Shown here piece by piece: positions 597 through 59,014 of a DNA stretch of 64,000 nucleotides (its first letter is position 1; each line of letters starts with the position of its first letter). The DNA is from Bolinopsis microptera (lineage: Eukaryota > Ctenophora > Tentaculata > Lobata > Bolinopsidae), in the NCBI RefSeq assembly GCF_026151205.1, contig NC_087081.1, forward strand, positions 16,170,837-16,234,836, read 5' to 3'. The notes under the pieces were generated by a model, which ran no database searches, was not told where the DNA came from, and worked only from the letters and a program-made list of their open reading frames with translations. Position numbers and translations under genes: made by a program.

Positions 597-3500
597 CGGT
601 TGCTATCTCTAGATTGAGTACGGAGGGAGGGTCAAGTGACGATCTTTATGAGTAAGACACATCGATTTCAAACATCTTTCTTATAATGAATGTTACGGTT
701 TTGAATTTAAATTATTCGATATTTATTTTAACGTAAGACATGCAAGCAAAATCTATTTTCAAGGTTTGATCACGACTAATGCCACTAATCGGGCTCTCAT
801 CCTATCTCAATAAAATTATAAATTGTAGTATTTGTTTCAGTTCCCCGCTAGTAGACGAGATGATTGCATGTACTCTTAAGTTCTTCAATTGTTATTTCAA
901 GATGGAAGAGAACAACAAGCCCCGCCCTATGATGGCGTAAGTAATTTAGAATAATTACTCTAATTACCTGAGTACGGGGTTGGTAGCGGACCTGAAAACC
1001 TTTAAAAAACCTTAAAAATCGTGAAATTGCCAAAAAACCTTAAAAAGAGCGGTTTCAGCTCAAAAAACCTTAAAAAAGGAGAACAAAACCTTTAAAAGTT
1101 TTTGAGAACCTTAAAAAAGCGTTCAAAAAACCGGGATTGGCATCTTCTCAAATTATACCTAGCAAGGTGTATCTCGGATTGAATTTGAAATTATACCTAG
1201 CAACTTAGCAAGGTGTATCTCGGATTGAATTTGAAATTATACCTAGTAAGGTGTACCTTGGTTGGGCAAAAAAACCTGTGACCTTTTTTTCTTTTTTTTC
1301 TTTTTTTTGGTCTTCACAAATAAACTGTAGTTTATGTGTCAACTTTCTTTTTTTCTTTTTTTTTGCGATACGGAAAGAAAACTTGCAAAAAACAACCTTA
1401 AAAACAAGCAAGTCACGTGGTGTAGGACACGTGGTAACTAATGGTAACTTGTAGGTCACGTGGTAACTAATGGTAACTTGTAGGTCACGTGGTAACTAAT
1501 GGTAACTTGTAGGTCACGTGGTAACTAATGGTAACTTGTAGGTCACATGGTAACTAATGGTAACTTGTAGTCACGTGGTAACTAATGGTAACTTGTAGGT
1601 CACGTGGTAACTAATGGTAACTTGTAGGACACGTGGTAACTAATGGTAACTTGTAGGACACGTGGTAACTAATGGTAACTTGTAGGACACGTGGTAACTA
1701 ATGGTAACTTGTAGGACACGTGGTAACTAATGGTAACTTGTAGGTCACGTGGTAACTAATGGTAACTTGTAGGTCACGTGGTAACTAATGGTAACTTGTA
1801 GGTCACGTGGTAACTAATGGTAACTTGTAGGTCACGTGGTAACTAATGGTAACTTGTAGGTCACGTGGTAACTAATGGTAACTTGTAGGTCACGTGGTAA
1901 CTAATGGTAACTTGTAGGTCACGTGGTAACTAATGGTAACTTGTAGGTCACGTGGTAACTAATGGTAACTTGTAGGTCACGTGGTAACTAATGGTAACTT
2001 GTAGGTCACGTGGTAACTAATGGTAACTTGTAGGTCACGTGGTAACTAATGGTAACTTGTAGGTCACGTGGTAACTAATGGTAACTTGTAGGTCACGTGG
2101 TATTATAAAAACATGAAATAAGCTGCAGTATACTAACAAGCTACCAGTCTAATGGTAACCCTAAGCGAGCAGAGTATCGAAGAAGCGGAGAGTGAGGCAC
2201 GTGACAATGACAGACTCAATGAAGCTCACAAGATGTTGTCCTCTGTTTACGGAGCGGTGCTGCTGGGACATAGGAGCCCAGATACTCATCATCTCTGCGC
2301 TGGCAAGTCAGTCAGCTTTCTGTTCATTATTCTTATTTAGTTTTTAGTGTTTATGTTTAGGATCCCCTTTAGGACTCTTAATACGGTAATTAAATTTTAA
2401 AGATATATCACGTGGCGGGGATATTTGATTAAGGCATTTATTTTAGTTTTTCAAAGTTCAAAGTTTCACAGTTCCAGTTCTCTTTCTGTCGTCTTATTAA
2501 ATTATATAAAATAAGTTATTTTATATCATTTCTTTTAATTTTTCGTGTTTCGTGGACTCCTTATTTTAATTAAAATCGGTTACAGGTTAAGATATTCTAA
2601 AACGAGAAAAGACAAAGACTTCTACGAAAGTTTGTACCAATGCCTCACTTACTGTGCTTGTCTCACATTTGTAGAAGCAGATCCTGATGTTATCAGAACC
2701 GAAATGGGCAGGCAAGTCACGTGGGCGTTTTGAGAGAGGTCACGTGGGTTTTGAGAGAATCTGTAATTCCATCTGTGACTGTGAGAGTTCGGCGTTATGA
2801 GTGTGTGAAATACGTGATTTGAACACTGCCAATTAGCGAATATGTGAGCATGACTTTCTGTGCGAAAGATAGTGAGCCAGCATTTGATATGAGGTGAGAA
2901 GTGAGAAAATTCAAGATTTGAAAATACTTATTCAGGTTCATCTTCCCCATCTTTAATAGCAGATTGCTTAATGCTTATGTTTTGTCAAGTAGATTTAGCT
3001 CAGATGTCAGTAATGAAACTGTAACACTAAATAATAACATAATTAGTTAATTAATTAATCAACTGTAACACTAACCATTACAGACTGTTCCGATCAGACT
3101 CGTTCAACATAAACCAACGAGTGCTGTCCCAGAAAGAGTTGGAGGAGAAGTACCCGGACTACTTCAAGTTGAAGGGACTAAGTGATCCTAATAGTGGTCC
3201 AAGTGCTGCTGAATACCGCCGACTAAGGAGGTTATTAAACCGTAGTACATACATATTACATTACACTGGATCGAGCTTACACAGTGTAATTTCCTCCAGT
3301 CTGCGCCGCGCGCCTACATAAACGTAGGCAGACTGGAGATAATTACACTGTGTAAGCTCCAGTGTAATGTAATATGTTAATGTACTACGGCTTTAACCAT
3401 TTGAGAGTTTACTTATATTTAATTTATCACATTACTTTTGTTTTGAAAATGGAGACGTAGTCCCGTAGTCCGTCCGTCATTCGATTTTTTAATTTTTAAT

Positions 3501-5413: not shown

Positions 5414-8400
5414 TTATTTAGGTGGTTTGCTGAGTTCGGGATCGTTACTTGGGAGGTACAAGTTGTTTTGCACCGTCTCTTCGTTCCAATCGTAGTAATG
5501 CAAAGCTTCCTTGAACCCAAAATCTCCCTGGTGAAAGTTTAGAGTTTAAAAATTTGATCATTTGGCACAACTGACTGAAAATGTAGCTGCTAAAACTAGT
5601 CGAGTTCAAAATTATCGAATATAAAATTGTAGAGCCTGGTTTTGTTAAAGCATCTAAATGTACCTGTGACACCCTGCACAGATGGGTCAGATGAGCCGCG
5701 GAGTCCAGAATTTCTCCTAGGTCGTTTAATAAACTAGTCGCGTACACCCTGTTAGTGAAACATACTTCAAACTTTTGTAAAACACATTACAATATAATTA
5801 GATACAATCATCGGACAAATCATCGGTAATTTCTGGCAAACACAAGCTTAAATTAGATGAAACTGATTGCTAATTTACCTTCCAACACTGTGGATGTGTA
5901 GCTGAAAACTAGGAGGTTCGAACTCAACAATCTCAATACCGTTAATCGTCACTTCACAAGGATCTCTAGAAACTAATCTCCCTTCAAACAACTTGCTTTT
6001 TTGCAGAAATCTGCGATGTCAGATTGAAATTATTAAAAGATATACGTGTAAATAAGAGTATGTAACTGTCAGCTATCATAAATATCATGTAGTGTAATAT
6101 GTATGTACTACGGCTTAACGCTTCTAATACGTATCATGAAGTTGTAACCATACGTCGAGACTAATTTTCGAAAACGTGGCCGGAAAACTATTTGAACATC
6201 TAAAATCCAACCTGAAAGAAGGTAAGACGGGTGGAATTTGTTGAATATTCCCAACATAGCACTCATTCAGTGCTTCTCTCATATCATTTTCCGACACGTG
6301 TTTATACGGTGAAACTCTGGAGTAATCCCCACTAGCATCGTAAGTGTTAGTAGCGACCCCTAACATTCCTCGGACCAGGTACATCCTGGTATGTCCTCGT
6401 ATAACCTGGAGTGTTCACAACATTGATATAAATAGGACAGCAGTAGAATATAGAACGTATAAATATAGTTGGTGGATTTAACCAACTGCGGGTGTTTCTG
6501 TGTTTGTAAAAATAAACTGGGATCAATGGAAAGGAGGTATTGCAACGTACCGGAATATATTTGACAGCCTTTCCGACTCCGAGTACCATTATTCCCTCCG
6601 AATAATTGTTCAGCGCTCCGGAATGTGCTATCTGAAATGAAATGCGAATTGACTGGCTGTCACAGAATCTAAATCGAGATCCCGTCGTATCGATCAGATC
6701 ATCTCGAAAAAATAAACAAACCCTAGCGCGCATTTGTTAACTGCGCGCGGATTCAACATGAAATAAATGTCGCAGCGCGTTACGTTTATGAGAAGAGATT
6801 TGTTCCTCTAAATATAGACCGGCGAAGTTAACCGGAAGACATTGTCCAACAGATTGTTTCGAATAGGAAATTTACCCCAACAGTGTACAAACATGTACTG
6901 AGCTTTACCACCTGACTCATGACTCCTAAAACTAACACTACATAAGTTGTGGTAGCTGGACTGTGCACAATGGATAGAGCAATCCTACTTTTAAAATCTC
7001 ATGGTAAATTCTCGTTCATACTGGTCTGTTCCTTCTATACTATTATTATCGCAGCGTGCAATATCGAGCACGTTTTGATATTTGTAGTTGAGGTTATTAC
7101 CGATTATTGAAATGATATTCGAATAGAAAACGGTCAACATTTTTAGCTGATGTGAATATTATCATATGATCATAGAATGAATTGAATCAGTGTCATTACA
7201 CCTTTTTTTTTTAAAGTAAAGATTAAACATAAAGTACCCAACAAAAATAATTCAAATTGTCCATAAGGAGGAAATTAAAATAATCAGTAAAAATGTTTCC
7301 TCCTAAAGTCTCTAAATGATCCTAGAGTCTAATCTGCAAAAATCATGGAGAATGTCACTAAGTATTGGTGCATTGTCACATAAAACCTAAGTCCACTTTC
7401 ATTCGTTATTCATATTCATGTAAATATCCTCAGGAATGGCATTCTGTTTCAGATCAGCGATTGTACAGTATTCCACATTCTCTCTCTGGGTCATCTTCGT
7501 CACCTCCCGTGTTCGTAGTCCCGAAGTTATCACTAGTTCTACACTTGCGTACGTGTCTTCTTCTTCCCCTCCTTCTTCTTCTTTTTCTTCTTCTTCTCCT
7601 TCTTCTTTAGCCCTACTGCAGACACTGTTGTTAATTTGAAAATTTAAAGCAAGTTTGGTTCAAATTCAATCATTTGTACTGTTATGGTATACAAACAAAA
7701 CTTCCAATCTTCTCTGATGATCTCAGTAATAAGTATACAAGGTATCTCACCTGTTGTCAATGTGAGCTTTAGGGGTTTCATCTTCTTGATGAACTCCGAT
7801 ATCATTCATGTAAGAGCAGTGCGAGTTCATCATTTTGGGTGCCTGACAGGGCCTTTGTGTAGTTGATGATCTTCCCAAGCACATGTAGGCATCCTCTTTC
7901 TCACCTTCAAAACTAGGTTCTCTTTTCTTTTCACCTAAAGTAGCATAGGAAACATCTTCTTTTACAACATCATCTTTAACAATCAGATGATCTCTATTCA
8001 GCACACTGAATGGTAACTCAACAGTAGGTTCCCCATCATTGCTTTCGTTTCCGGTAGTCTTGAAACGGATCACAGGTTTACTAGCCACAAGGGTAGCATA
8101 AGTGTTACCAGAGTCCTCTAAGTCGAGCTTTGAGCGAAAAGTTGCTATCTCTAGGGCATCAAGACCGATAGCTCTTTCTCCGTCTGTTTTTTCTAATTCA
8201 GTTGATGAAGCTGAGTTAGAAGAATCATTCTTTACATTTTCCTTTGTTATACGTGGTGTTTTCTTGCAGAGATTAAAGTATAACATGATAACGAGACATA
8301 TCAAGAGAATTAGAAACCCTCCACTACCAGCTCCAATACGGATGTAGAAATCTGCTCTGGAGCAGTCTTGTTCAAGTTTTGAAAACGCTAAACTGTTCTT

Positions 8401-11400
8401 TCCTTTGGGGCATTGGTTACAATTATTTCCATATCCAAACTGCCCACCTGTGCAATTACTTATATCAGGGAAGCAGCCAGCCTTTTTCTTTGTAAATGCA
8501 TAGCTTGTGTTTCCATCAGGACACTGGGTACAATCATTTCCATAGCCATATTGACCTCTGGTGCAGTCACTTAAATCAGGGAAACATTCTTGTTCTTTCA
8601 CGGTACTGGGCTTGCTGGTCTGATTTTCTGGACACTGATGACAACTTTCCCCAGTTCCCCACTTTCCTTCAGGACAGGAACTGTTTCCAGTGTAGCACTC
8701 TCCAGCACCAGCTATACTTGTTTCTCCCGTTGTACAATCCTCACAGTCTTTACCAACACCACCTTCTCCTGCTTTACAATTGTACCCGACTCTAGTGATC
8801 TGACCAGTTTGCAGGTCTTTGTCATTATCTTTGAGAACACAGTTCACCACATCTAGATCGGTCAGAGATAGTGTCATTATTAGCCGGGGAGGTGTTGAGG
8901 TAGTATATCCACTCTCGTCTCTCGTTATATTAACATCATCTCCACAATCTAGTGTCACCTGTTTTAATGGCCAGCCTTGAACAACCCACTGGAACTCAGT
9001 GTCTTTGTCGTTGGCTTTGTAGTAATCAAATTCCGGAGAGTGGAGGAGAGATACTTGGTGGGTGTACTGTAACACATATGTTTTAGTAACATTGTCTCCG
9101 AAGTTCTTGTTGAAGAAAGTACAGATCCAAGTTCCCAGGTGATCAGACGTGAGGCTATCTATAGAGACTGTAGATGTGATCTTGTGATCTGCCTTAGAAG
9201 TCTCAATAGAGTTGATTGGGTTTATGCCAGTAGGATCATCGTCTTTAGTCCACTTAACATCCAGATAGGGAGCTCCAGAGCCAGTGCAGGTGAGAGTGTA
9301 GTTAGAGCCCAGGTTCACATCTTCTGTCTTACTTTGGTCTTTGTCACAGAGTCTTGGTGTGGGATCAGAGCAGGCTGATATGTATTCGTAGACAATACAT
9401 CTTCCCCCATTCTTTATCCTTACAACATCTTTTAGTTGTACGTTGTTGTTCTGGAACCAGTTCCAATTTTGAGTCGATTTAAAGTTGTAGTCCAAGCTTG
9501 CAGAATTGCCAGGGTCTCCAAGATAGATCTTGTAAAAGTCGGAATATTGGTCCGAAATCTGGAAATTAGATGCTTTTCCAGTTATCTCTTCACGTATCTC
9601 TCCAATAATTTTCCCGTTTTGACCATCTTCGTCCTTTCCTGAAACTTTAAATATGGTGTACCCACTAGACTCGGAGTAAATATATATCTGAAGTACAAGA
9701 GCTTGATTCGACTCATCAGTTCCATGCACGTAGAACCTCAAGAAGTCATATATTTGATAGTCGGCTGTTTTATAATCACACGAAGGGAATGTATCAAAAC
9801 TAGCGGATATGATGCCAGCAACTTTGCCTTTTCCCACTGCATCTTCAAAGAAAGTATCGTCTATGCTAGAGTGACTTTTCCAGTCATGTCTGGGATTATC
9901 ATAAAGAAACTCACAAACCGTCTCACAGCTTTTAACGGCCCCGTATAAAACAACAAGCAATACCAGCACAAGTAAACTCCTCATAACGAAAAGCAATCTT
10001 AGAAACTGAAGGAAGAGTAAAATATGACCAAGTTTTGATAAGGCAAAACCTTACTCAGGACTTTCTACTATCATGCGATATTCATATTTCTAGTTTTCTC
10101 GAAATATTTCATACGGTTTAGACTTCCTTACTATTAACAATCATCTGCCAGCACGATGGTAAGATGGTTCAATGTAGCTACTCAGTATACACATTTCGGC
10201 ATTTCCCTTTTCCTATTACACGAACAATAACGCAGCTAGTAAATGAGTGGGTAAAGGTGTTAGCTTGTATCACTCTTGGGGGTGAGGGTAATGTGAATTC
10301 AGGATGTGACATGACATGTGGATTTAAACATTTACTAATAAGGGAGAAATTATTAGAGTTATACGGGTATCGGCCTTACAAAATGACACGAAAAAGGAGA
10401 TGGCTCTGAAATGCACAAAAATGAGTTTTGTTCATGTTTTATTATCCAGATAGGTAGTTCAACAGGTATATTTTTCTTCCCGGGGGTTGATTTGATTGAA
10501 AAACCGTAAATTTTGCGATAAAAATTGTCATCTTTGAAATCTTCCAAAAAAACATGCCTTACAAAATGACAATTTCGTCACGGCTGTCATTTTTTAACAG
10601 CAGCCTATAGAAATTTGATTTTACCTAGGACAGTTAGATAAATATAATAGATTGAAGATTAGAATAGCTTTTACAATAAAAAGGATGATTAAAAAAAGTT
10701 GGGCAATTTCGCGTGAGATAGTGCCTTACAAAATGACAACCCAAAACGGCATTACTTCAAATCCGATTTGGGAAAAAGTTTCATTATTCTTTCACGTGTC
10801 TTACTGTTAGATATATATGTTGTTTATATTATACCAGTTCTGTTTTTACCAAAATATATTTAAAAAGGAACATTTTCATACTTTGAAAAAATTTTAATAC
10901 TTGAACACAGTATTTGGTTATATTTGATATTTTCTATGACTGGATAGATCACTTTTCAGTGTTTAGTTAACGTTTGACATGTTTTAGGAGTTGTTATTAC
11001 TCTCTGCTTTCACAAAATAGAAGCTTTATTTCGTTGAGTTTTGAAATCAGAGTTTGAAATCAAAGAGTTTGAAATCAAAGTTTTGATATCAGAACTGCAC
11101 TTTTTTAATGCTACTTGATTGTTAACTGTCAGATTATGATTATTTTTAACTCCTTCTTGTATTGACTGTCTCTGATCCATTTTAGATGATGAAAATAATT
11201 CAATCTGAAACATTGTCATTTTGTAAGGCTTTTCGGTGTCATTTTGTGAGGCATTTTGATCAAAATTGATGATCAAACAAACACATTTAGGCTCATCATA
11301 AGCTTACTGGGTTTAAGAATACCAATAATTAGGCAAGGGGCATCCAATATAAATATGCCATCTTTGTATCATAAAATAAAACTGTCATTTTGTGAGGCAT

Positions 11401-14400
11401 AACACTGTCATTTTGTGAGGCTAGGTCATTTTTTTGTCATTTCTTCTACCAAAGTCACTAAATCAGTTTTTTTATTTGACCAGAGTAGTCTTTGATTGAC
11501 ATAAGTCATGGTAGTACCTGGTTTTCTGGGGTTAAATTCAAAACTTTGGTCTCCATTTTGGGTAACAGTTAGGCGGGGCAATGACTGAACAGCAAAAACG
11601 TCCATATTTATGTAAGAAATATAGATTCTATGTCATTGTCATTCCTTGGGAAGTGTTAATTAATGCTTTTTCTTTCATACAGTAAAAGGAATAGGGTTCA
11701 ATGTATAGGGAACCTAAGCTACAGCATGGTCTATGTGGGCTGTCATTTTGTGAGGCCTGTCATTTTGTAAGGCCGATACCCGTAATCAAATTTACACAGC
11801 AATACAATACAAATAGTAAATAAGACGCTTCGATCTGCTGTGCAGGACATTCAAATCAGTCAAAAACTGTTAATAGAATGCCCTTCTAAGGATTAAGAAT
11901 CAAAATATATAATATTATGATTATAAATAAATAAATTATGGTAGGGTGGGTTAAAACATCTCCACAGATAAAGCTATAATGAGAAACATTATGAGTCAAA
12001 AGACGAAAGCTGAAAAGACTGGATGACATACCATATAAAATAAAGCGATTCAAAAAGGTAGAAATGCGTTAATAAAAACACAACTGCGGTCGTGTCAGTT
12101 GTGTTTCTCTGGATGGGATGTATTATAAGAATTTGCATGTAACTGTAATGTACATTGTAATGTACATCGTAATTGTAATGTACATTGTAATGTACATTGT
12201 ACATTACTGACACCTCTCGGTCGGAACATAGTCCGATCTACGCCATATAACCCTCTCCTTGGAGTTTACGTATAGTAGTACTATTAACTTAGTGAGAAAA
12301 TGGAAATGTGAATCCTGACTTCTGAGTAGCTACACGGTACCATCGTATTGGAAGTATTCACTAGTGTTCAGTAAGGAAGTCTCAACCGTATGGAACATTT
12401 CGAGAAAACTAGAAATATGAATATCGTATAATAGTAGGAAGTCCTGAGTAAGGTTTTGTCTTATCAAAACTTGGTTATATTTTACTATTCCTTCAGTTTC
12501 GAAGATTGCTTTTCGTTATGAGGAGTTTACTTTTGTTCGTATTGATTGTTCTTTCATTTGGGGCCGTTAAAAGCTGTGAGACCGTTTGTGAGTTTCTTTA
12601 TGACAATCCCAGAGATGACTGGAAAAGTCACTCTAGCATAGACGATACTTCCTTTGAAGATGCAGTGAGAAAAGGCAAAGTTGCTGGCATCATATCCGCT
12701 AGTTTTGATACTTTTTCATCTTGTGATTATAAAACAGCCCACCATCAAGTAAATGAATTCTTGAGGTTCTACGTGCATGAGTCTGATGAGTCGAACCAAG
12801 CTCTTGTACTTTGGATACATTACTCCGAGTCTAATGGGTACACCATATTTAAAGTTTCAGGAAAGAATGGAGATGATGAAGTCGGGAAAATTATTGGAGA
12901 GATACGTGAAGATGTAACTGGAAAGGCAGCTAATTTCCAGATTTCGGACCAATATTCCGACTTTTACAAGATATATCTTGGAGATCCTGGCAATTCTACA
13001 AGCTTGGACTACAACTTTAAATCAGCCCAAGATTGGAACTGGTTCCAGAACAACAAAGTACAGTATTACTACAAAGCCAACAACAAAGATACTGAGTTCC
13101 AGTGGGTTGCGCAAGGCTGGCCACTAGAACAGGTGACACTAGATTGTGGAGATGATGTTAATATAACGAGAGACGAGAGTGGATATACTACCTCAACACC
13201 TCCCCGGCTAATAATGACACTATCTCTGACAGATCTAGATGTGGTGAACTGTGTTCTCAAAGATAATGACAAAGACCTGCAAACTGGTCAGATCACTAGA
13301 GTCGGGTACAATTGTAAAGCAGGAGAAGGTGGTGTTGGTAAAGACTGTGAGGATTGTACAACGGGAGAAACAAGTATATCTGGTGCTGGAGAGTGCTACA
13401 CTGGAAACAGTTCCTGTCCTGAAGAGAAGTGGGGAACTGGGGAAAGTTGTCATCAGTGTCCAGAAAATCAGACCAGCAAGCCCAGTACCGTGAAAGAACA
13501 AGAATGTTTCCCTGATTTAAGTGACTGCACCAGAGGTCAATATGGCTATGGAAATGATTGTACCCAGTGTCCTGACGGAAACACAAGCTATGCATTTACA
13601 AAGAAAAAGGTTGGCTGCTTCCCTGATGTAAGTAATTGCACAGGTGGGCAGTATTGATATGGAAATAACTGCACCCAATGCCCCAAAGGAAAGAACAGTT
13701 TAGCGTTTTCAAAACTCGAACAAGACTGCTCCAGAACAGATTTCTACGTCCGTATTGGAGCTGGTAGTGGAGGGTTCCTGATTCTCCTGATAGGTCTCGC
13801 TATAATATCGTGGACAGTTATCCGGAAAATAAAAACCACCACCCCTGAAGATATCAACGTCGAAATGAAAGACACAACTCCTGAAGATACCTACATCAAC
13901 ATGAATGCACAAGACACAACTCCTGAAGATACCTACATCAACATGAATGCACAAGACACAACTCCTGAAGATACCTACATCAACATGAATGCACAAGACA
14001 CAACTCCTGAAGATACCTACATCAACATGAATGCACAAGACACAACTCCTGAAGATACCTACATCAACATGAATGCACAAGACACAACTCCTGAAGATAC
14101 CTACATCAACATGAATGTACAAGACACAACTCCTGAAGGAACCTACATCAACATGAATGCACAAGACACAACTCCTGAAGATACCTACATCAACATGAAT
14201 GCACAAGACACAACTCCTGAAGATACCTACATCAACATGAATGCACAAGACACAACTCCTGAAGATACCTACATCAACATGAATGCACAAGACACAACTC
14301 CTGAAGATACCTACATCAACATGAATGCACAAGACACAACTCCTGAAGGAACCTACATCAACATGAATGCACAAGACACAACTCCTGAAGATACCTACAT

Positions 14401-17400
14401 CAACATGAATGCACAAGACACAACTCCTGAAGATACCTACATCAACATGAATGCACAAGACACAACTCCTGAAGATACCTACATCAACATGAATGCACAA
14501 GACACAACTCCTGAAGGAACCTACATCAACATGAATGCACAAGACACAACTCCTGAGGATACCTACATCAACATGAATGCACAAGACACAACTCCTGAAG
14601 ATACCTACATCAACATGAATGTACAAGACACAACTCCTGAAGGAACCTACATCAACATGAATGCACAAGACACAACTCCTGAAGATACCTACATCAACAT
14701 GAATGCACAAGACACAACTCCTGAAGATACCTACATCAACATGAATGCACAAGACACAACTCCTGAAGATACCTACATCAACATGAATGCACAAGACACA
14801 ACTCCTGAAGATACCTACATCAACATGAATTCACAAGACACAACTCCTGAAGGAACCTACATCAACATGAATGCACAAGACACAACTCCTGAAGATACCT
14901 ACATCAACATGAATGCACAAGACACAACTCCTGAAGATACCTACATCAACATGAATTCACAAGACACAACTCCTGAAGATACCTACATCAACATGAATGC
15001 ACAAGACACAACTCCTGAAGATACCTACATCAACATGAATGCACAAGACACAACTCCTGAAGATACCTACATCAACATGAATGCACAAGACACAACTCCT
15101 GAAGGAACCTACATCAACATGAATGCACAAGACACAACTCCTGAGGATACCTACATCAACATGAATGCACAAGACACAACTCCTGAAGATACCTACATCA
15201 ACATGAATGCACAAGACACAACTCCTGAAGATACCTACATCAACATGAATGTACAAGACACAACTCCTGAAGGAACCTACATCAACATGAATGCACAAGA
15301 CACAACTCCTGAAGATACCTACATCAACATGAATGCACAAGACACAACTCCTGAAGATACCTCATCAACATGAATGCACAAGTCACAACTCCTGAAGATA
15401 CCTACATCAACATGAATGGACAAGACACAACTCCTGAAGATACCTACATCAACATGAATGCACAAGACACAACTCCTGAAGGAACCTACATCAACATGAA
15501 TGCACAAGACACAACTCCTGAAGATACCTACATCAACATGAATGCACAAGACACAACTCCTGAAGGAACCTACATCAACATGAATGCACAAGACACAACT
15601 CCTGAAGATACCTACATCAACATGAATGCACAAGACACAACTCCTGAAGGAACCTACATCAACATGAATGCACAAGACACAACTCCTGAGGATACCTACA
15701 TCAACATGAATGCACAAGACACAACTCCTGAAGATACCTACATCAACATGAATGTACAAGACACAACTCCTGAAGGAACCTACATCAACATGAATGTACA
15801 AGACACAACTCCTGAAGGAACCTACATCAACATGAATGCACAAGACACAACTCCTGAAGATACCTACATCAACATGAATGCACAAGACACAACTCCTGAA
15901 GATACCTACATCAACATGAATGCACAAGACACAACTCCTGAAGATACCTACATCAACATGAATGCACAAGACACAACTCCTGAAGATACCTACATCAACA
16001 TGAATGTACAAGACACAACTCCTGAAGGAACCTACATCAACATGAATGCACAAGACACAACTCCTGAAGATACCTACATCAACATGAATGCACAAGACAC
16101 AACTCCTGAAGGAACATACATCAACATGAATGCACAAGACACAACTCCTGAGGATACCTACATCAACATGAATGCACAAGACACAACTCCTGAAGATACC
16201 TACATCAACATGAATGTACAAGACACAACTCCTGAAGGAACCTACATCAACATGAATGCACAAGACACAACTCCTGAAGATACCTACATCAACATGAATT
16301 CACAAGACACAACTCCTGAAGATACCTACATCAACATGAATTCACAACACACAACTCCTGAAGATACCTACATCAACATGAATGCACAAGACACAACTCC
16401 TGAAGGTACCTACATCAACATGAATATTGAATAACAAATGAATAAAAACTTAAGTTCTACGTGATGTCATTAGTACTTTTATTCATGATTTTTGTCGATT
16501 TTGATTTAGACTCCAGAGCCATTTACAGAATTTGAGATATACATTAGAATTATAATTAGAATCAAATTTACACAGCAATATAATAAAAATAGTAAATAAT
16601 TTAGAGATGCTTCGATCTGCTGTGCAGGACATTCAAATCAGTCAAAAACTGTTATATCAAAAAACTGTTAATATAGAACATAAAAAGTATTGACTGATTA
16701 GTTTAATTCCACACCTCCTTGACAATATAATATACAAATTTTGTTTGAGATTTGCAGTTCTTGCTCATACTGTATTAAATTGATTGGGTGATATACAGTA
16801 AATAATTAATAAGTGAAAGGAGAATCTTACTTTAATTGTTTACATTTTTAATTGCTTTCATCTTCTGATAAAACTTATCAAATTCATTCTAGATGGTACT
16901 ATGTTTTCATTCATTATCAGCTTCCAGATTTTACCGTTATCTACAGAGTATCATTTTTTATAATTACGAATAAAACCAGCTGCATAATATGGGACAAAAT
17001 GTGTTCGAAATTGCTTATATTGGAGCAATTGTGAGAAAATACCATGGAATTTTAAGAGTAGGAATGCCAGAGGTATTCCATAGGTTTTTTGCACTACAAC
17101 AAGGAATTGCGAAAGGGATTTTGGATGTTTTTGCCATTTTAGGAATGACGATAGTGGCAAAATCTTAATATATGAATATCCCTCTAGCTTTAAATTACTA
17201 ACCTTATCGGTGCCTAGATTCGATTTTATCTTCTTTAGTATCGAAGAAGTTGAACAACCTGGAAGTGTTTAAGGGTATTATAAAAAGTAACAATCTAAAT
17301 GTAGCACTATTACTTTTGTCACTAATACTCTATGATCTGCAAAAAGAAAGCGATGTGTTCAAGTCTAGACGTGAATTGACAAGAAGTCAAAAGCATCTTT

Positions 17401-19120: not shown

Positions 19121-20608
19121 TCAAGCATAAGTTTGGTTTGGAAGAACATTATATCCTGGCGGGGGACTAGCAGCAGAAACTACCGGGGCAGTGTTGGGCA
19201 CAGGGCACACAGGGTTGTTTACTGTAATGGTAGGAGTTCGGGTGTCTCCAGGGTTTGTAAGACAAGAGCACATTCCCTCACAACACCAATCAACACAGAG
19301 TCCACCCCGACAGCATGCAAGCACAGACGCAACAGAGAAGAAAAGAATCGTTACAGTAGGAATAACAATACCCATATGATAATGCATTTCATTTTCAAAT
19401 TGCCAACGTGAATATCCATAGATCTCATAATAAGGCATTTCAGAATAAGAATCACGTAGGTGTTCTCCTCTGGATAGTAACTTTCCTTCAGAATCAGCAC
19501 TGCAGTATATATCGTATCCTTGATCAAAAATACAGACATTCTCGAAAAATATAAATGACTCAGTTATATTTGAGACTTTGTGACTCTTCTCACTGTAGCT
19601 GAAGCAATTCCAAGCATCGCTTTCAGTTGTAGTTTCTATGGGTTGAATAGTTTCGGATTTTGTTTTATTTGTGGTACTGAAAAACCAAAAAACGGGGCCA
19701 TTTTCAACAACACACTGCATCAGAACTTTTGACTTCAGACCAATATTGAAGTTTCTTTTAAAGTATGTGATGTTTGTGGGTAATTTCTCATCAGATGCCG
19801 AATCAAGAACAGTGATATTTAAAGATTGAGGTCCATCCCATCTCGAACGAGAGCCCCAGATGCATTTGTAATCACCAAAATCATCCTCTGTGACATTGCG
19901 TATTGAAAGAACCGATGTGAAGCATTTGGTTCTTCTTCTGTTTAGAGTAAATCTATAATACTCTTCAAGACTTTCAGTAGTGATGTCCATTGCTTTAATG
20001 ATGTCTGATCCTCCTTGTAAGATCTCACAGTAGTCATAGGTCAGGAAACTGTAAATTTCATAATTGGCATCTTCAGTTGATATAGCTTCTCCCTTCCTTT
20101 CCCATGTGTAGTTACAAGAGTGTTCGTTTTCTTCAACTGTATAACCATTTTCGTTGTTGCAGTAAATCCGTAAATTAGAATTATATTCTTGTATAATCTT
20201 TGAGCATCTGAAAATCTCATGATTATCTAAAATTAGCCAAATTCTTGAAATATTACTCTGTAAAGCAATCATTGGAATTAGACTATTCTAGGTAACAATC
20301 ATAACAGCACAGTGGGTATCTAGTGCCCAATAAGGCTATAAGCTCATGCAAGAACTCTGACTTAACCCACTAAAAAGAGTCAACTACAAATGATGTAAAT
20401 GTAAAAAATGTAAATGATCAATTATACATTGCTTTTAAAACGTATTCTTCATTCACCTGATTTCAAGTGGTGCTCCAATAATAGCAGGAACTTTTCTCAG
20501 AGTAGTGTGAGAGAATAACTCTTCATTCGAGGAGATAGGTAGTACTCCCAATAGGATGCATAACCCAATACTAATGAACATACTGAGAAAAACAAGTTTT
20601 AAATTCAT
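19121..20608 (-). CDS. Ig-like single-pass receptor with Cys-rich juxtamembrane and PPPGY tail
   Basis: Two exons, 20608-20457 and 20282-19121, join in phase 2 to give 437 aa. The ATG at 20608 begins a hydrophobic signal peptide (MNLKLVFLSMFISIGLCILL). The ectodomain shows an Ig-type DDFGDYKCIWG followed by SLNITVLD, then a second Cys-containing domain with many N-glycosylation sites. A TM helix (VIPTVTILFFSVASVLACC) is followed by a cysteine cluster with CC, C and CC pairs, then a Pro-rich tail with PPPGYNVLP near the C-terminus. PPxY binds WW domains; PPPGY is close but not exact. No ITIM is evident. It is on the same strand as receptor A and the TruB-like gene and could belong to a local receptor cluster. 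No named family is recognised. Confidence 0.75.
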
Positions 20609-28953: not shown

Positions 28954-29267
28954 CTAAGATTCATCGTCTGATGAAATGACAATATCTGAGCACTCTGAAT
29001 CAGAATAATCTTCTGTGCACAGCTCAGAAGAAGGGGGACAGTCCTCTTTATTTGGGGCTTCAAATTCATTTGGACAGGGGCCGAAGTTGTCCCCAAATGT
29101 TCCGATGTTCTTTTTGAGAAACAAGCACCCCTCAAAGTTTGTTGGCTTAAGGCTGAGGCGATTTAACTTCAGGATGTGCCCTGCTGTAGAAAACAATCTC
29201 TCTGGTGCTGCTGAGCTCGCCGGCGCAGATAGATATTTCCTTGAACGCTCAGCAAGGTTCGGATAGG
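28954..29267 (-). pseudogene. hAT transposase C-terminal dimerisation domain, split
   Basis: The minus-strand reading contains YPNLAERSRKYLSAPASS, then ERLFSTAGH and FEGCLFLKKN, the hallmark of the hAT C-terminal dimerisation region (family pattern RKYLSIPASS...ERVFSTAG...). It ends with an acidic tail and TAG stop. The reading resumes beyond the nested element (after 29769) as GHANKQS. The N-terminal catalytic part is absent. Confidence 0.8.
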
Positions 29268-29768
29268 GGTGGGCGACAATTGACCCCCCGACAATTGACC
29301 CCCCGACAATTGACCCCCGACAATTTACCCCCCGACAATTGACCCACGGCTGACCTTGACCCTGACCCAGGACCCAGGACCCAAGACCCAGGACCCAGGA
29401 CCCTGACCCTGACCCTGACCCTGACCCTGACCCTGACCCTGACCCTGACCCTGACCCTGACCCTGACCCTGACCCTAACCCTGACCCTGACCCAGGACCC
29501 TAACCGTAACCCTAACCCTAACCCTAACCCTGACCCAGGACCCTAACCCTAACCCTAACCCTAACCCTAACCCTGACCCAGGACCCGATCAATTGACCCC
29601 AGTGTAATTACATGGGGGTCAATTGTCGGGGGGTCAATTGTCGTACTAAACCCTAGATTTCGCGACAATTGACCCCAGTGTAATTACATAGGGGTCAATT
29701 GTCGGGGGGTCAATTGTCGGGGGGTCAATTGTCGGGGGTCAATTGTCGGGGGGTCAATTGTCGCGGTA
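29268..29768. mobile_element. nested fold-back element filled with telomere-like repeats
   Basis: The flanks read CGGATAG on both sides (29261-29267 and about 29770-29776), consistent with a 7- or 8-bp duplication of hAT type. The ends carry several inverted copies of GACAATTGACCCCCC. The core (about 29355-29585) is CCCTGA and CCCTAA hexamers with interspersed CCCAGGA. Confidence 0.75.
29355..29585. repeat. interstitial telomere-type repeat (CCCTGA/CCCTAA)
   Basis: Tandem CCCTGA units grading into CCCTAA. CCCTAA is the complement of the animal telomere repeat TTAGGG. It sits inside the nested element and is therefore not a chromosome end. Confidence 0.9.
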
Positions 29769-32550: not shown

Positions 32551-43071
<10,521 letters not shown>

Positions 43072-45434: not shown

Positions 45435-47878
45435 AGTAAAGTAAAGTAAAGTAAAAATTATGGCATAACATCATCACACATGTCTACAATTAAAGTATCA
45501 AAACACTACATGGAAAAATATAAATATCTTACCACCAAAATTAAAAAAATATTATATATATATATATATATAACTCTAAAACTCTGGTCACAAGAGCAAC
45601 TGCCTAAACGTGCAGAAGTGAAAACAAATAAATAAAATACTAGCAATCCTTTAAATTCGCAATAAATAAGTTCGTTCAATGTCATTATATAATTCTAAAA
45701 CCACATATATGTGACCAGTAAATAATTTAATTGGTCTATAGACTACTGTATGAAATTCTCAATATAAACTTTTAAACAATAATAAATTAATTAAAAAACA
45801 CACAACAACCTTTGGTGTGTAAGAATGATTAAACAGCCTCATTTTGACACAAAATATCTTCATAATATTATAGTATATGCTATAATATTAGAACTGTTAA
45901 GTTGAGTTCAGGTAACAGAATTTAACTGTAATAGAACCTCTGCTGTGTTATCCACTGTTGAGATGTAGCCATATCTTCGTCCGGTCTAACATTGACCCCG
46001 GCTCATGAAATATATGCTTCGTCCGGTCTAACATTGAACCCGGCTCACTAATCATAGGGATGGTGTAGTTATGGTAGTTGGAATATAATCAACTGTTTAA
46101 AGTTTTATCTCTATTCGAAGGAATTCTTCTGCATCCTTTGTTATTTCCAGTGCTAGATCAAAGAACTCACGAAGTCTGCTCCATGATATCAACATTGAGT
46201 TCCCACCATAGCCTTGGTTTTTGATGTTGTGGAAAGGGTGTCTTTCAAGAAGCTCACTCATTTTGTTCCTTTTATCTGCTTGTACATCAGGACAGTCGGT
46301 AAGCAGGTGAAGTGAATTTTGAGCCCCTCGCCTACAATCACACAGTGGAGAATCAAATTTACTGCTTTTGAAGCGATGAAGAAATTCATTCATTATGTTG
46401 TTCGGATAGAACAAGCTTAGAAACAAGGTTTCAAGTTGCCTTGATGTTTTGGGCGGAAACTTGAGCTTTGTGGCGCTCACTGTAGGTGCCTCTGTATACC
46501 CTTCCAGCTGGTATTGGCTGTTTATGGACGATTGCCAAAGCTGTTCACTGTAATGTTTCATCACTGATTTACTGTAGCTGCATCCTTTTATTGATAGACT
46601 GGTGAGTTTTTCTAGATCATGGTTATTTATGATTTTTAGATCCTCATTAGTGAAGTGTTCAGGAAGTATCGAAGATTTCCACAATAGAAACTGAAATACA
46701 TCTTTTACTTTTCCAGTTAGTGCGCTGTAACTGCCTGATTTCATTTGGTCATCAATAAGGTGTTTCAGTGGATCCTCTTTATTCGGGAATATATTCAGTT
46801 TAAGGATGTGCTTCACTGAGTTCACTTTGTTTGATATGTTGAGTGGCAACACACCAAGTATCATTTCAGCTGTAGTTAGTCTTACATTGAACACTGCACC
46901 CAAAGCTGCTTTTATAGTCCTATACCAAGCGCTTTCAATTTCTTTGATACTTCTATTATTGATCCAGACAGTTCCAGCATAGTGGATCCGTGAATATATG
47001 AGAACTTCAATTAGCCTTACAATGACATGTTGTCTGAATCCCCAGTTGCGGTTTGTATACTTGCATATTGTAGCCCACCGACCAAGTATCTTTCTGTTAA
47101 TATCCTTTGCGTGCTCGATGTAGGTGAGCTTTCTATCCATTATCAAGCCTAGTACTTTGGTCTTTTCGACGAATTTGATCTCGTTGCTACCAAGACGAAA
47201 TGACAACGGAAGAAGCGTTTCATCGTTTTCTGCAGTTCCGAATCCAATTAGTTCAGTTTTTCCGGGATCGCAGTTTATTATCATTCTCCATGTTATACTC
47301 CATTTATAGATAGCATAACATGTCATCTGTAGATTGAGAAGACACTGGTGTGTTGTTTCACCTCTGACCCTTAATGTTCCATCATCCGCAAACTTGAAAA
47401 CCCCTATATCTGGGTTGAGGGTGAGATCCTGTGCAAGGTCATGCAAAAAGAATTTGAATAGAATTGGAGACAATGCTGAACCTTGTGGTAGTCCAAATTC
47501 TCTACATGCTGTAATGAAGCCAGTATAGTTGTTGAATACAAGACGAACTTTTCTGTTGAAGAGAAAGCTGTTTATAAGTCTCCACATACTTCCGGATACT
47601 CCAAAGTCGGACAACTTTTTCATGAGACCTTTTTTCCAAACACTATCAAAAGCTTTTTCAAAATCTATAAAGAGACAGATGACCGTGTATTTCTTCTGAA
47701 GATGACTACGAACATCATTATCCAGTCTGTTTAGATAACGAACAGTGTTGCGCTTTTTTGTGAACCCTTCTTGATACTCATCGCTTAGGCCCTTCTTTCT
47801 AAGGTGCTCTTCTAATCTATTAGCAATTATTTGTTCAAATACCTTACCAATATAGGATGTTATAGAGATCGGTTTTAA
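45435..47878 (-). mobile_element. 5'-truncated non-LTR retrotransposon (LINE)
   Basis: Minus-strand element with an open reverse transcriptase reading to the stop at 46097. It ends in a (TTTAC)n tail (GTAAAGTAAAGTAAAG on the plus strand at about 45437-45453). The 5' end is lost at about 47878. GC-rich repeat copies lie on both sides, so it probably inserted into or beside that repeat. Confidence 0.85.
46097..47875 (-). pseudogene. LINE reverse transcriptase, N-terminally truncated
   Basis: About 590 codons remain open, the first about 85 upstream of the first internal ATG (47623). RT landmarks in order: PISITSYIGKVFEQIIANRL, GFTKKRNT, CLFIDFEKAFDSVW, GLPQGSALSPILF and FADDGT (the FADD catalytic box). 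A C-terminal Cys/His segment CDCRRGAQNSLHLLTDCPD follows. The endonuclease domain is absent. The order and the GLPQGSxLSPxLF form fit the Jockey/CR1/I group. The reading is intact over its remaining length, which suggests a fairly young insertion. Confidence 0.88.
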
Positions 47879-49084: not shown

Positions 49085-49584
49085 AAATCATGATGCATGA
49101 TGTGCAGATGCATTGCCTATATAGTCATTGTAGATATTCCCAGGAAACCTTACTGTTAGGGGCCTAACTTCGGAAGTAAAAGAGATAGAAACGTCCGGTT
49201 TTCAACAAAATGTCCGTCTCGTAAAACTAAAGTAGCCAAATTCAAAACAATGTAGATTTTGAATTATCGCGAAAAGTTTGATTTTGGGCTAAATAAAAGA
49301 TCGCAGCTTTTAAACTTTGCGAAGTAATGTCGTTGTCATGACTCCAGATTGTAATTCACGCGAGCGAGCGAGCGATCATGCAGTGAACGTTACGTCACGC
49401 GCGCTGACACACGTGCCATCGAAAAACAACCACCTCTAGTACCACGGCCAGCCGGTAAGCTTTTCTGGGTATAAATTTTGTTCTGTGAATGAGGCCTTTG
49501 GTCTACAAGCTCAATTGGTTAAATCTCGGCTCACCTTCCCCAGATTATATATTGAGTTTTCACACTTTTTTAATTCCAGGAGCA

Positions 49585-50597
49585 ATGTCAAAATCTTCAG
49601 TAACTAGGGTTGCTCTTGGACCCATGGAAATGGGAAAACGGATGAACTTTGAAGATAGTGAAGCCTTTCTCAAAAAGTTTCAGGAGTTTGGGCATACTGA
49701 ATTAGACACAGCCTACATGTATGCTGGCGGAGCAGATGGAGGTGCAAATGGGGGACTCACTGAGGAGTTTATGGGTAAAATTGATACTGTAAATGGTTTA
49801 AATGTTGCTACAAAAGTAAATCCAGCTGGTGGCAAAATGTTTCCTCCGAAAAGTGTCAGGCATCAACTTGAGACATCTATGAAAAAGTTAAATACTGAGT
49901 GTGTTGATTTGTTCTATTTACATTGGCCCTGCATGGATGTTAATCATTAATATCGAGGATACTCTTTGCGAAGTCAACAATCTCCACAAGGAAGGGAAAT
50001 TCCAGAGATTTGGTCTGTCTAATTTCATATCATGGCAAGTGGCTGAAGTTCAGCAAATCTGCATACACAATGGGTACATTCAACCAACTGTATATCAAGG
50101 AATGTACAACTGTCTCACAAGGTTGGTAGAAAAAGAACTTTTCCCGTGTCTTCAAAAGTATGGAATGAGCTTCTACTCTGGCTGGTGGTATACTTACAGG
50201 TAAACACATTAGAGATGAAAATCCAGAGAAGGTGAGTGAACCAGGAAGATTTGCAGGAAAGGCATGGGGAAAAGCTTACAAAAATAGATTCTGGAGGGAT
50301 AAGTATTTTGATGCTCTTGATATCATACAAGATGCCTGTAAAAAGGAAGGAGTTGCTGTAACATTGCATCTGCAGCGTTGAGGTGGGTCACACACCACTC
50401 TGCTTTAACAGGAGACAATAATGATGCTATTATTGTGGGTGCAAGTAATATCTCTCATTTGGTTTCTAATCTTGATTTTTTTGAAAGAGGGACCACTTCC
50501 AGTTTCGGTTGTTGATGCTATTGAGCAGGGGCATGAGCTTACAAAAGGCCATGGTCCCAACTATTTTAGAAACGTAAACATGCCACATGCTGTATGA
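49585..50597 (+). pseudogene. processed pseudogene of an AKR7-type aldo-keto reductase
   Basis: Intronless and broken by several frameshifts. Reading across frames gives an almost full-length AKR7 (aflatoxin aldehyde reductase) order: RVALGPMEMG, ELDTAYMYAGG, VATKVNPAGGK, CVDLFYLHWP (49585-49950); KFQRFGLSNFISWQVAE and PTVYQGMYN (to about 50175); GGILTGKHIRDENPE and KNRFWRDKYFDAL (to 50382); then ALRWVTHHSAL, VGASNISHLVSNL, and after another shift ELTKGHGPNYFRN with a TGA at 50597. The family is NADPH-dependent, and Asp/Tyr/Lys/His catalytic neighbourhoods are partly visible. At least four frame changes rule out a functional gene unless the sequence is faulty. AATAAA lies about 170 bp past the stop. 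The lack of introns suggests retroposition; no clean poly-A tail or target duplication was found. Confidence 0.85.

Positions 50598-51703: not shown

Positions 51704-59014
<7,311 letters not shown>

What the first reader, a model, noticed from the sequence alone, without database searches (positions are those of the whole stretch)
13871..16434. About 61 tandem YINM phosphotyrosine units in a receptor tail
A 14-residue unit centred on TYINMN is repeated about 61 times directly after a TM segment. pYxxM is the PI3K p85 SH2 consensus and pYxN the GRB2 consensus (as in CD28 YMNM). Such a density of dual-specificity docking sites in one tail is, to my knowledge, not described. The Tyr-Ile-Asn-Met core is invariant while flanking residues vary, which hints at purifying selection or very recent expansion. 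Whether it is translated is unknown because of two lesions.
Basis: partly seen in the sequence, partly recalled or inferred. Interest (0 to 1): 0.9.

Follow-up and report, generated by a model that had tools for sequence, protein, structure and literature searches.

The report
Comb-jelly receptor with 61-fold signalling tail
In a comb jelly, one copy of an immune-type receptor gene lost its usual tail and instead carries about 61 near-identical copies of a short 'YINM' docking signal that its near relatives carry once; whether the protein is made is not known, because the gene copy in this assembly has two breaks that may be real or assembly errors.

Summary
The array is real in this assembly: 61 units of 42 bp (TTPEDTYINMNAQD) at 13874-16434, right after a transmembrane segment. 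The genome is very probably Bolinopsis microptera, a ctenophore. The host gene is the inverted duplicate of a receptor gene at 9984-7399 (-). That family has an N-terminal domain, an Ig domain, Cys-rich repeats and a tail with ITIM-like and YxN sites. The + copy lost the Ig domain and the ITIM-like tail. The family's last exon encodes ONE C-terminal YxN[M/V] site in 4 of 5 last exons read; here that segment was amplified. The 3'UTR is homologous to the paralog's, so this is a coding-exon minisatellite formed in place. An ED-x-Y-[IM]-NM pattern has 45 matches in the genome: 44 in the array, 1 in the paralog's last exon. YINM is the DAP10 motif. Evidence for function is limited: an in-frame stop, a 1-bp deletion, no expression data. 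Core invariance is weak evidence of selection: unit diversity equals that of a nearby non-coding minisatellite. Best reading: an exonic VNTR that would turn an ITIM-type receptor into a multivalent YINM receptor; a recent pseudogene is the serious rival.

The parts
12518..13654 (+). Array gene, ectodomain part 1: signal-peptide-like start, N-terminal domain, Cys-rich repeats; the Ig domain present in the paralog is missing at 13062/13065
   Evidence: ORF; alignment to paralog
13655..13657 (+). In-frame stop (TGA) where the paralog has a glycine codon
13658..13822 (+). Last Cys-rich repeat, juxtamembrane stretch and TM segment (hydrophobic core 13766-13822)
13838..13873 (+). Diverged 12-codon unit without Tyr (TTPEDINVEMKD)
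   Evidence: read from sequence; translation
13874..16434 (+). 61 tandem 42-bp units, TTPE[D/G]TYINMN[A/V/S/G]QD, ending TTPEGTYINMNIE-stop
15344..15384 (+). Unit 36, 41 bp: 1-bp deletion shifting the frame; two other singleton changes lie within 57 bp of it
16435..16545 (+). 3'UTR homologous to the 3'UTR of the minus-strand paralog
   Evidence: local score 47 against a maximum of 36 in 500 shuffles
7751..9984 (-). Inverted paralog, long first exon: ectodomain with Ig domain, TM, tail with ITIM-like site VSYATL
   Evidence: exon end inferred from a splice-donor-like sequence
7399..7615 (-). Inverted paralog, inferred last exon: DTYASV, VEYCTI, and the single C-terminal site PEDIYMNMNNE-stop
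   Evidence: exon limits inferred from splice-like signals and homology to P0003

Best explanation
This is a coding-exon minisatellite in a ctenophore receptor gene. Step 1 (shown; its timing inferred): a receptor gene was duplicated in inverted orientation. Step 2 (shown): the + copy lost its Ig domain in frame and lost the ITIM-like part of its tail. Step 3 (shown): the 42-bp segment encoding the family's single C-terminal pY-[IM]-N-[MV] site was amplified in place to about 61 copies, keeping frame in all but one unit, the stop codon and the 3'UTR. Step 4 (inferred; most likely mechanism if translated): on ligand binding, Src-type kinases phosphorylate many of the acidic-flanked TYINMN tyrosines, which recruit GRB2-type SH2 adaptors (pYxN) and possibly PI3K p85 (pYxxM). 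This makes a highly multivalent DAP10/CD28-like output in place of the paralog's mixed ITIM-like tail. Unit number would set signal strength and vary between alleles. The stop and the frameshift would be consensus errors or features of this allele.
For: Origin: the window paralog ends ...VEYCTIADLKQNAIPEDIYMNMNNE*, L047 ends ...VQYCTITELREKTTPDSHYINMDSK*, L043/L044 end in NTEDIYMNVGKD*/NTEDIYINVGKD*; 3'UTR homology; the ED-x-Y-[IM]-NM pattern occurs in the genome only in the array and in the paralog's last exon. Receptor: TM; Ig domain of the paralog, Pfam E=1.6e-8; paralog ectodomain model with mean pLDDT 86.2, pTM 0.64. Paralog dN/dS 0.45, bootstrap 0.30-0.74: one nonsense and no frameshift over about 430 ectodomain/TM codons despite dS 0.13, so much of the history was under coding constraint. 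Period 3x14, only one of the three + frames open, 59 of 60 spacings exactly 42, whereas the three largest other arrays of the window have periods 29, 17 and 7. Lesions: the published B. microptera assembly used wtdbg, gap closing and pilon polishing (passages of PMC10232365), a route that can leave indels in arrays where short reads cannot be placed (inference); 3 of 5 singleton changes, the deletion included, lie within 57 bp (P=0.014, post hoc). Motif: YINM is listed for NKG2D/DAP10 (passages of PMC10715270).
Against: Two lesions in the only copy seen. No transcript or protein evidence; none of the 7988 scored candidates in each of two searches was a ctenophore protein with the array, although proteins or records of the window's own genome may be left out. 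The PI3K p85 iSH2 profile PF16454 gave 0 matches in the genome (blind to introns, and the control genomes rang in 1 of 14 with none over the cut-off, so inconclusive); the SH2 search PF00017 did not complete. More amino-acid changes on the array copy's lineage (18) than on the paralog's (7), 16 unresolved, fits relaxed constraint as well as adaptation. Unit diversity equals that of a non-coding minisatellite.
Confidence: 0.5

Rival explanations
1. Recent pseudogene: the duplicate is dead or dying, and the array is a passive minisatellite that grew by slippage or unequal exchange, with no signalling role.
For: Stop and frameshift; loss of the Ig domain; the window is rich in uniform minisatellites (29 bp x 23.6, 17 bp x 48.1, 7 bp x 233), and the 17-bp one has the same unit diversity; faster protein change on this lineage, 18 against 7.
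Against: One nonsense and no frameshift across about 430 ectodomain/TM codons at dS 0.13 with dN/dS 0.45; frame kept in 60 of 61 units; the frameshift sits in a cluster of singleton changes, and the published assembly route can leave such errors.
Confidence: 0.38
2. Assembly artefact in copy number: the true allele has far fewer or more units, because the assembler or gap closer mis-sized the array.
For: wtdbg assembly with gap closing and short-read polishing (passages of PMC10232365); 2.5-kb array with 3% unit diversity.
Against: Several unit types in a non-trivial order, the longest recurring mixed block being 6 units in a scan of blocks of 4-12 units, argues against a simple duplicated join; 2.5 kb is shorter than typical long reads (general knowledge).
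Confidence: 0.1
3. Translated, but the tail is structural (a long acidic spacer) rather than a phosphotyrosine dock.
For: About 510 residues with net charge -102 from just after the TM to the frameshift; no kinase or SH2 data.
Against: The amplified piece is the family's Tyr motif, kept in 4 of 5 last exons read, beside other Tyr motifs in the paralog tail.
Confidence: 0.1

Closest known systems
DAP10 (HCST) YINM adaptor tail of NKG2D
   Same: Identical YINM core; the motif is listed for NKG2D/DAP10 in passages of PMC10715270. Binding to p85 and GRB2 is recalled.
   Different: DAP10 has one motif in a short adaptor (recalled); here about 61 lie in a receptor's own tail. No homology was tested or is claimed.
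CD28 YMNM tail
   Same: Dual pYxN/pYxxM logic; YMNM recruits SH2 and/or SH3 proteins (passages of PMC5852078). The window paralog ends in a single YMNM.
   Different: Single site, unrelated ectodomain, vertebrate (recalled).
Engineered PD-1 chimeric switch receptor (ITIM/ITSM replaced by YINM or ITAM)
   Same: Replacing inhibitory motifs by YINM (passages of PMC12131497) is what deletion plus amplification did here to an ITIM-like tail.
   Different: Laboratory construct for NK cells; not a tandem array as far as the passages say.
Tubulanus polymorphus 'cubilin-like isoform X2' (P0042)
   Same: Receptor-like protein whose C-terminal part has 19 E-D-[T/D]-Y units, mostly 13-14 residues apart.
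   Different: CUB ectodomain; Tyr followed by I/V, none YxNM; another phylum; presumably convergent. Its TM was seen by eye, not computed.
Ctenophore Ig/Cys-rich receptor family (P0001-P0041; B. microptera LOC134817205; Mnemiopsis ACHWQZ_G012961)
   Same: Ectodomain, TM and C-terminal YxN[M/V] exon are homologous.
   Different: Relatives read carry one C-terminal site or none, plus ITIM-like sites absent here; 4 of 41 proteins (P0024, P0026, P0028, P0029) have instead a single YANM in mid-tail.
Multi-YxxP scaffold p130Cas; bacterial EPIYA-repeat CagA (recalled)
   Same: Several phosphotyrosine motifs whose number matters.
   Different: Cytosolic scaffold or injected effector, fewer and more varied repeats, other motifs.

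Membership tests
Ctenophore Ig/Cys-rich receptor family | Homologous N-terminal domain and Cys-rich stem | tested here: met
   96.5% DNA identity over 739 bp and 91% over 696 bp to the paralog; 64 matched stretches in the genome, a lower bound
Ctenophore Ig/Cys-rich receptor family | Ig domain | tested here: not met
   Pfam Ig at E=1.6e-8 in the paralog, none in the array copy; deleted between 13062 and 13065. The copy is a derived, Ig-less relative by descent
Ctenophore Ig/Cys-rich receptor family | C-terminal exon with a pY-x-N-[M/V] site and family 3'UTR | tested here: met
   the site itself is present in 4 of 5 last exons read, so it is common but not universal
ITIM-bearing inhibitory receptor | [S/I/V/L]xYxx[I/V/L] in the tail | tested here: not met
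   Paralog has VSYATL and VEYCTI; every full unit of the array reads TYINMN, which does not fit
DAP10/CD28-type YxNM signalling | YxNM motif in a TM protein's cytoplasmic tail | tested here: met
   (in the DNA; translation not shown)
DAP10/CD28-type YxNM signalling | Tyr phosphorylation and binding of GRB2/p85 | not testable with these tools
   No biochemical data; PF16454 search negative but inconclusive
DAP10/CD28-type YxNM signalling | Homology to DAP10 or CD28 | not tested
   No direct sequence comparison with DAP10 or CD28 was made; likeness in motif only
Translated gene | Open frame across ectodomain, TM and array | tested here: not met
   TGA at 13655 and a 1-bp deletion in unit 36 in this assembly

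The most novel reading that the evidence does not exclude
A natural inhibitory-to-activating tail switch: in a ctenophore, a duplicated ITIM-type receptor dropped its inhibitory motifs and its Ig domain and acquired a ~61-valent YINM tail whose length is a hypervariable, allele-specific gain control for GRB2/PI3K signalling. With the nemertean protein, it would mark tandem acidic-Tyr tails as a recurrent invention.
Probability: 0.3. Interest if true: 0.85.

Novelty: new variant of a known kind. Interest (0 to 1): 0.62.

Why it matters
If translated, it would be by far the most multivalent YxNM tail I know of (from recall), and a natural counterpart of engineered switch receptors. It would let one ask how docking-site number sets signal strength and clustering, using natural length alleles. 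It also shows that a YxN[M/V] site like those of DAP10 and CD28 occurs in ctenophore Ig receptors beside ITIM-like sites, which bears on how old, or how easily reinvented, this signalling code is. Even if dead, it is a clear case of a minisatellite born in place from a single SH2-motif exon.

Tried and rejected
Rejected: the long open frame as evidence by itself. The unit has no stop in the coding frame, so openness costs nothing, and one minus frame is nearly open too (2 stops over units 1-35). Rejected: Pfam hits of the array to DUF3467 and DUF2192, which have whole-protein E-values of 4e-12 and 6e-9 but no single significant stretch, as expected of a repeat. Rejected: core invariance as strong evidence of selection. 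Of three control arrays tried, the 17-bp one is used; the 7-bp one has no diversity at all (0.0), and the 29-bp one gave 0.27 in fixed register, probably from a register slip, and was dropped. Uninformative: Foldseek of the family ectodomain gives mostly generic Ig proteins; Rfam at gathering threshold finds nothing in the window; phage records have no match. Led nowhere: array protein searches gave no ctenophore protein (7988 scored candidates each); literature searches gave no such array. A 24-residue TYINMN query found nothing, not even the array, so it shows only that this search misses such repeats. PF16454 search negative without a working positive control.
Full report
Observation. The array is as described: TRF reports 13869-16425, period 42, 60.9 copies, 96% matches, 0% indels. 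Sixty-one unit starts are found from 13874 on; 59 of 60 spacings are 42 bp and one is 41. The codon unit is TTPEDTYINMNAQD. In the 59 full units (unit 36 and the terminal unit left out) nine of fourteen codons never vary and two vary only synonymously (GAA/GAG, ACC/ACA). The other three are D/G at codon 5, A/V/S/G at codon 12 and a single D-to-H at codon 14. The last unit reads TTPEGTYINMNIE followed by a stop. A diverged unit without Tyr lies between the TM segment and unit 1. Of the three + frames only the coding frame is open over units 1-35; one minus frame has just 2 stops.

Where it is. The window lies on G000:C10. Contigs C1 (26,206,493 bases) and C2 (23,028,209) of that genome have exactly the lengths given for the contigs of the B. 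microptera proteins P0003, P0016 and P0026, and the last exon of P0003 is found on C1. The species is therefore taken as Bolinopsis microptera, a ctenophore.

What the gene is. The array gene (from 12518, +) and an ORF on the minus strand (ATG at 9984) are an inverted pair: 96.5% identical over 739 bp and 91% over 696 bp. The minus copy has an Ig domain (Pfam E=1.6e-8). The + copy lost it between 13062 and 13065, in frame. Of 41 homologous proteins (7996 candidates scored), the 8 that carry a name are all ctenophore: 3 B. microptera and 5 Mnemiopsis. 64 matched stretches occur in the genome, on C1, C2, C3, C4, C8, C10, C12 and C13 (a lower bound). AlphaFold gives the ectodomain of the minus copy a mean pLDDT of 86.2 and pTM of 0.64 (546 residues); Foldseek returns mostly generic Ig proteins.

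Where the unit comes from. I read 13 family regions of the genome (two pairs overlap). A last exon was recognised in 4 of 13 (L043, L044, L047, L048), and in the window paralog. Of these five last exons, four end with a Tyr site: YINM (L047), YMNM (window paralog), YMNV (L043), YINV (L044); the fifth (L048) ends without it. Of the five named Mnemiopsis proteins, three (P0004, P0009, P0014) end shortly after the preceding Tyr site, without it, and two (P0010, P0033) have a different short tail with a TYDN site. YxNM occurs in 5 of the 41 proteins: P0003 at the C-terminus, and P0024, P0026, P0028 and P0029 as a single YANM in mid-tail. The array's last unit and stop sit where the paralog's do, and the following 3'UTR aligns with the paralog's (score 47 against at most 36 in 500 shuffles). 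A degenerate E-D-x-Y-[IM]-N-M pattern has 45 matches in the whole genome: 44 in the array, 1 in the paralog's last exon; the backwards control has 0. So the array is the family's C-terminal docking site, amplified in place. The paralog's tail also has the ITIM-like sites VSYATL and VEYCTI. None of these remains in the array copy, whose homology to the paralog stops at about 13803, in the TM segment.

Timing. The array copy and the minus copy are about equally distant from P0001 (N-terminal part 67.1% and 67.9%, stem 86.5% and 89.2%). P0001 is an unnamed ENA protein. In G000 the next best match of the array copy's stem after the window pair is at 62%, so P0001 is presumably from another ctenophore, and the duplication is younger than that split (inference). 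Among aligned differences 18 amino-acid changes fall on the array lineage, 7 on the other, 16 unresolved.

Selection. Paralog dN/dS is 0.45 (bootstrap 0.30-0.74), which shows coding constraint for much of the history but does not say on which branch. Inside the array all 5 non-synonymous codon variants (6 with the one in unit 36) lie outside TYINMN. With 54 of 98 possible non-synonymous changes outside the chance of that is about 0.05 (0.03), by hand, and the test is post hoc. Unit diversity is 0.031, against 0.030 for a non-coding 17-bp array in the window; the 7-bp array has none, and the 29-bp array could not be used in fixed register. Short mixed blocks of up to 6 units recur, as unequal exchange would leave them.

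The lesions. A TGA interrupts the last Cys-rich repeat at 13655, and unit 36 has lost one base, which ends the frame after 35 intact units. The published B. microptera assembly used wtdbg, gap closing with TGS-GapCloser, and Illumina polishing with pilon (passages of PMC10232365); that G000 is this assembly is inferred. Short reads cannot be placed uniquely inside such an array, so an indel there may well be a consensus error (inference). Three of five singleton changes, including the deletion, fall within 57 bp (the terminal unit's own differences left out; P=0.014 by simulation, post hoc), which suggests a locally poor consensus or a locally decayed patch. The stop cannot be judged here.

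Mechanism. If translated, the tail offers one TYINMN every 14 residues on a strongly acidic chain (net -102 over 511 residues). YINM is the motif listed for NKG2D/DAP10 (passages of PMC10715270) and YMNM is that of CD28 (passages of PMC5852078). That pYxN binds GRB2 and pYxxM binds p85 is established knowledge, recalled. In the last exons read the constant part is Y-[IM]-N and position +3 is M or V, so GRB2-type binding is the safer ancestral guess; p85 binding would apply to the M members. Loss of the ITIM-like sites with gain of YINM sites resembles an engineered PD-1 switch receptor in which ITIM/ITSM were replaced by YINM or ITAM (passages of PMC12131497). The genome search for the p85 iSH2 profile was negative, but it is blind to introns and its control genomes rang in 1 of 14 with none over the cut-off; the SH2 search did not complete. 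Downstream partners in this animal are therefore not shown.

A parallel. The only database protein that matched the array (1 of 7988 scored candidates) is a nemertean CUB-domain protein with 19 E-D-[T/D]-Y units, mostly 13-14 residues apart, in its C-terminal part after a hydrophobic stretch. It looks like an independent invention of a similar tail. Papers describing such arrays were not found in the searches; of these I saw listings and abstract starts, and passages of PMC11797021, PMC12131497 and PMC10715270. The library holds open-licence papers only.

Verdict. The array is real, its origin is now clear, and it is unusual. Its function is unproven, with a pseudogene as the serious rival. 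Interest 0.62; new variant of a known kind.

Noticed in passing
P0042 (database protein): Tubulanus polymorphus cubilin-like isoform X2 has a C-terminal part with 19 E-D-[T/D]-Y units, mostly 13-14 residues apart: an apparently independent tandem acidic-Tyr tail.
   Followed up: partly
window 19121-20287 (-): A 388-codon open frame with weak Ig-like similarity (Pfam Ig_3 E=1.3e-4, below the curated cut-off) and a hydrophobic stretch; possibly another receptor beside the pair.
   Followed up: no
window 55488-57118: 233 copies of a 7-bp unit (ATAGAGT) at 100% matches: very recent expansion or an assembly artefact.
   Followed up: no
window 1421-2102 and 40207-41023: Minisatellites outside the pair (29 bp x 23.6; 17 bp x 48.1); the 17-bp one served as the diversity control.
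   Followed up: partly
L043, L044 (family last exons): Partial duplications just before the C-terminal Tyr site (L044: ENIENTEIENTEDIYINV) and GAAGAAGGA-type repeats at the exon start: the last exon looks repeat-prone in these relatives too.
   Followed up: partly
P0024, P0026, P0028, P0029: A second, mid-tail YANM site in a subfamily of the same receptors.
   Followed up: no
window 46097-47878 (-), 28954-29499 (-), 49489-49950 (+): Reverse transcriptase fragment (PF00078), hAT transposase C-terminus (PF05699) and an aldo/keto reductase exon (PF00248).
   Followed up: no
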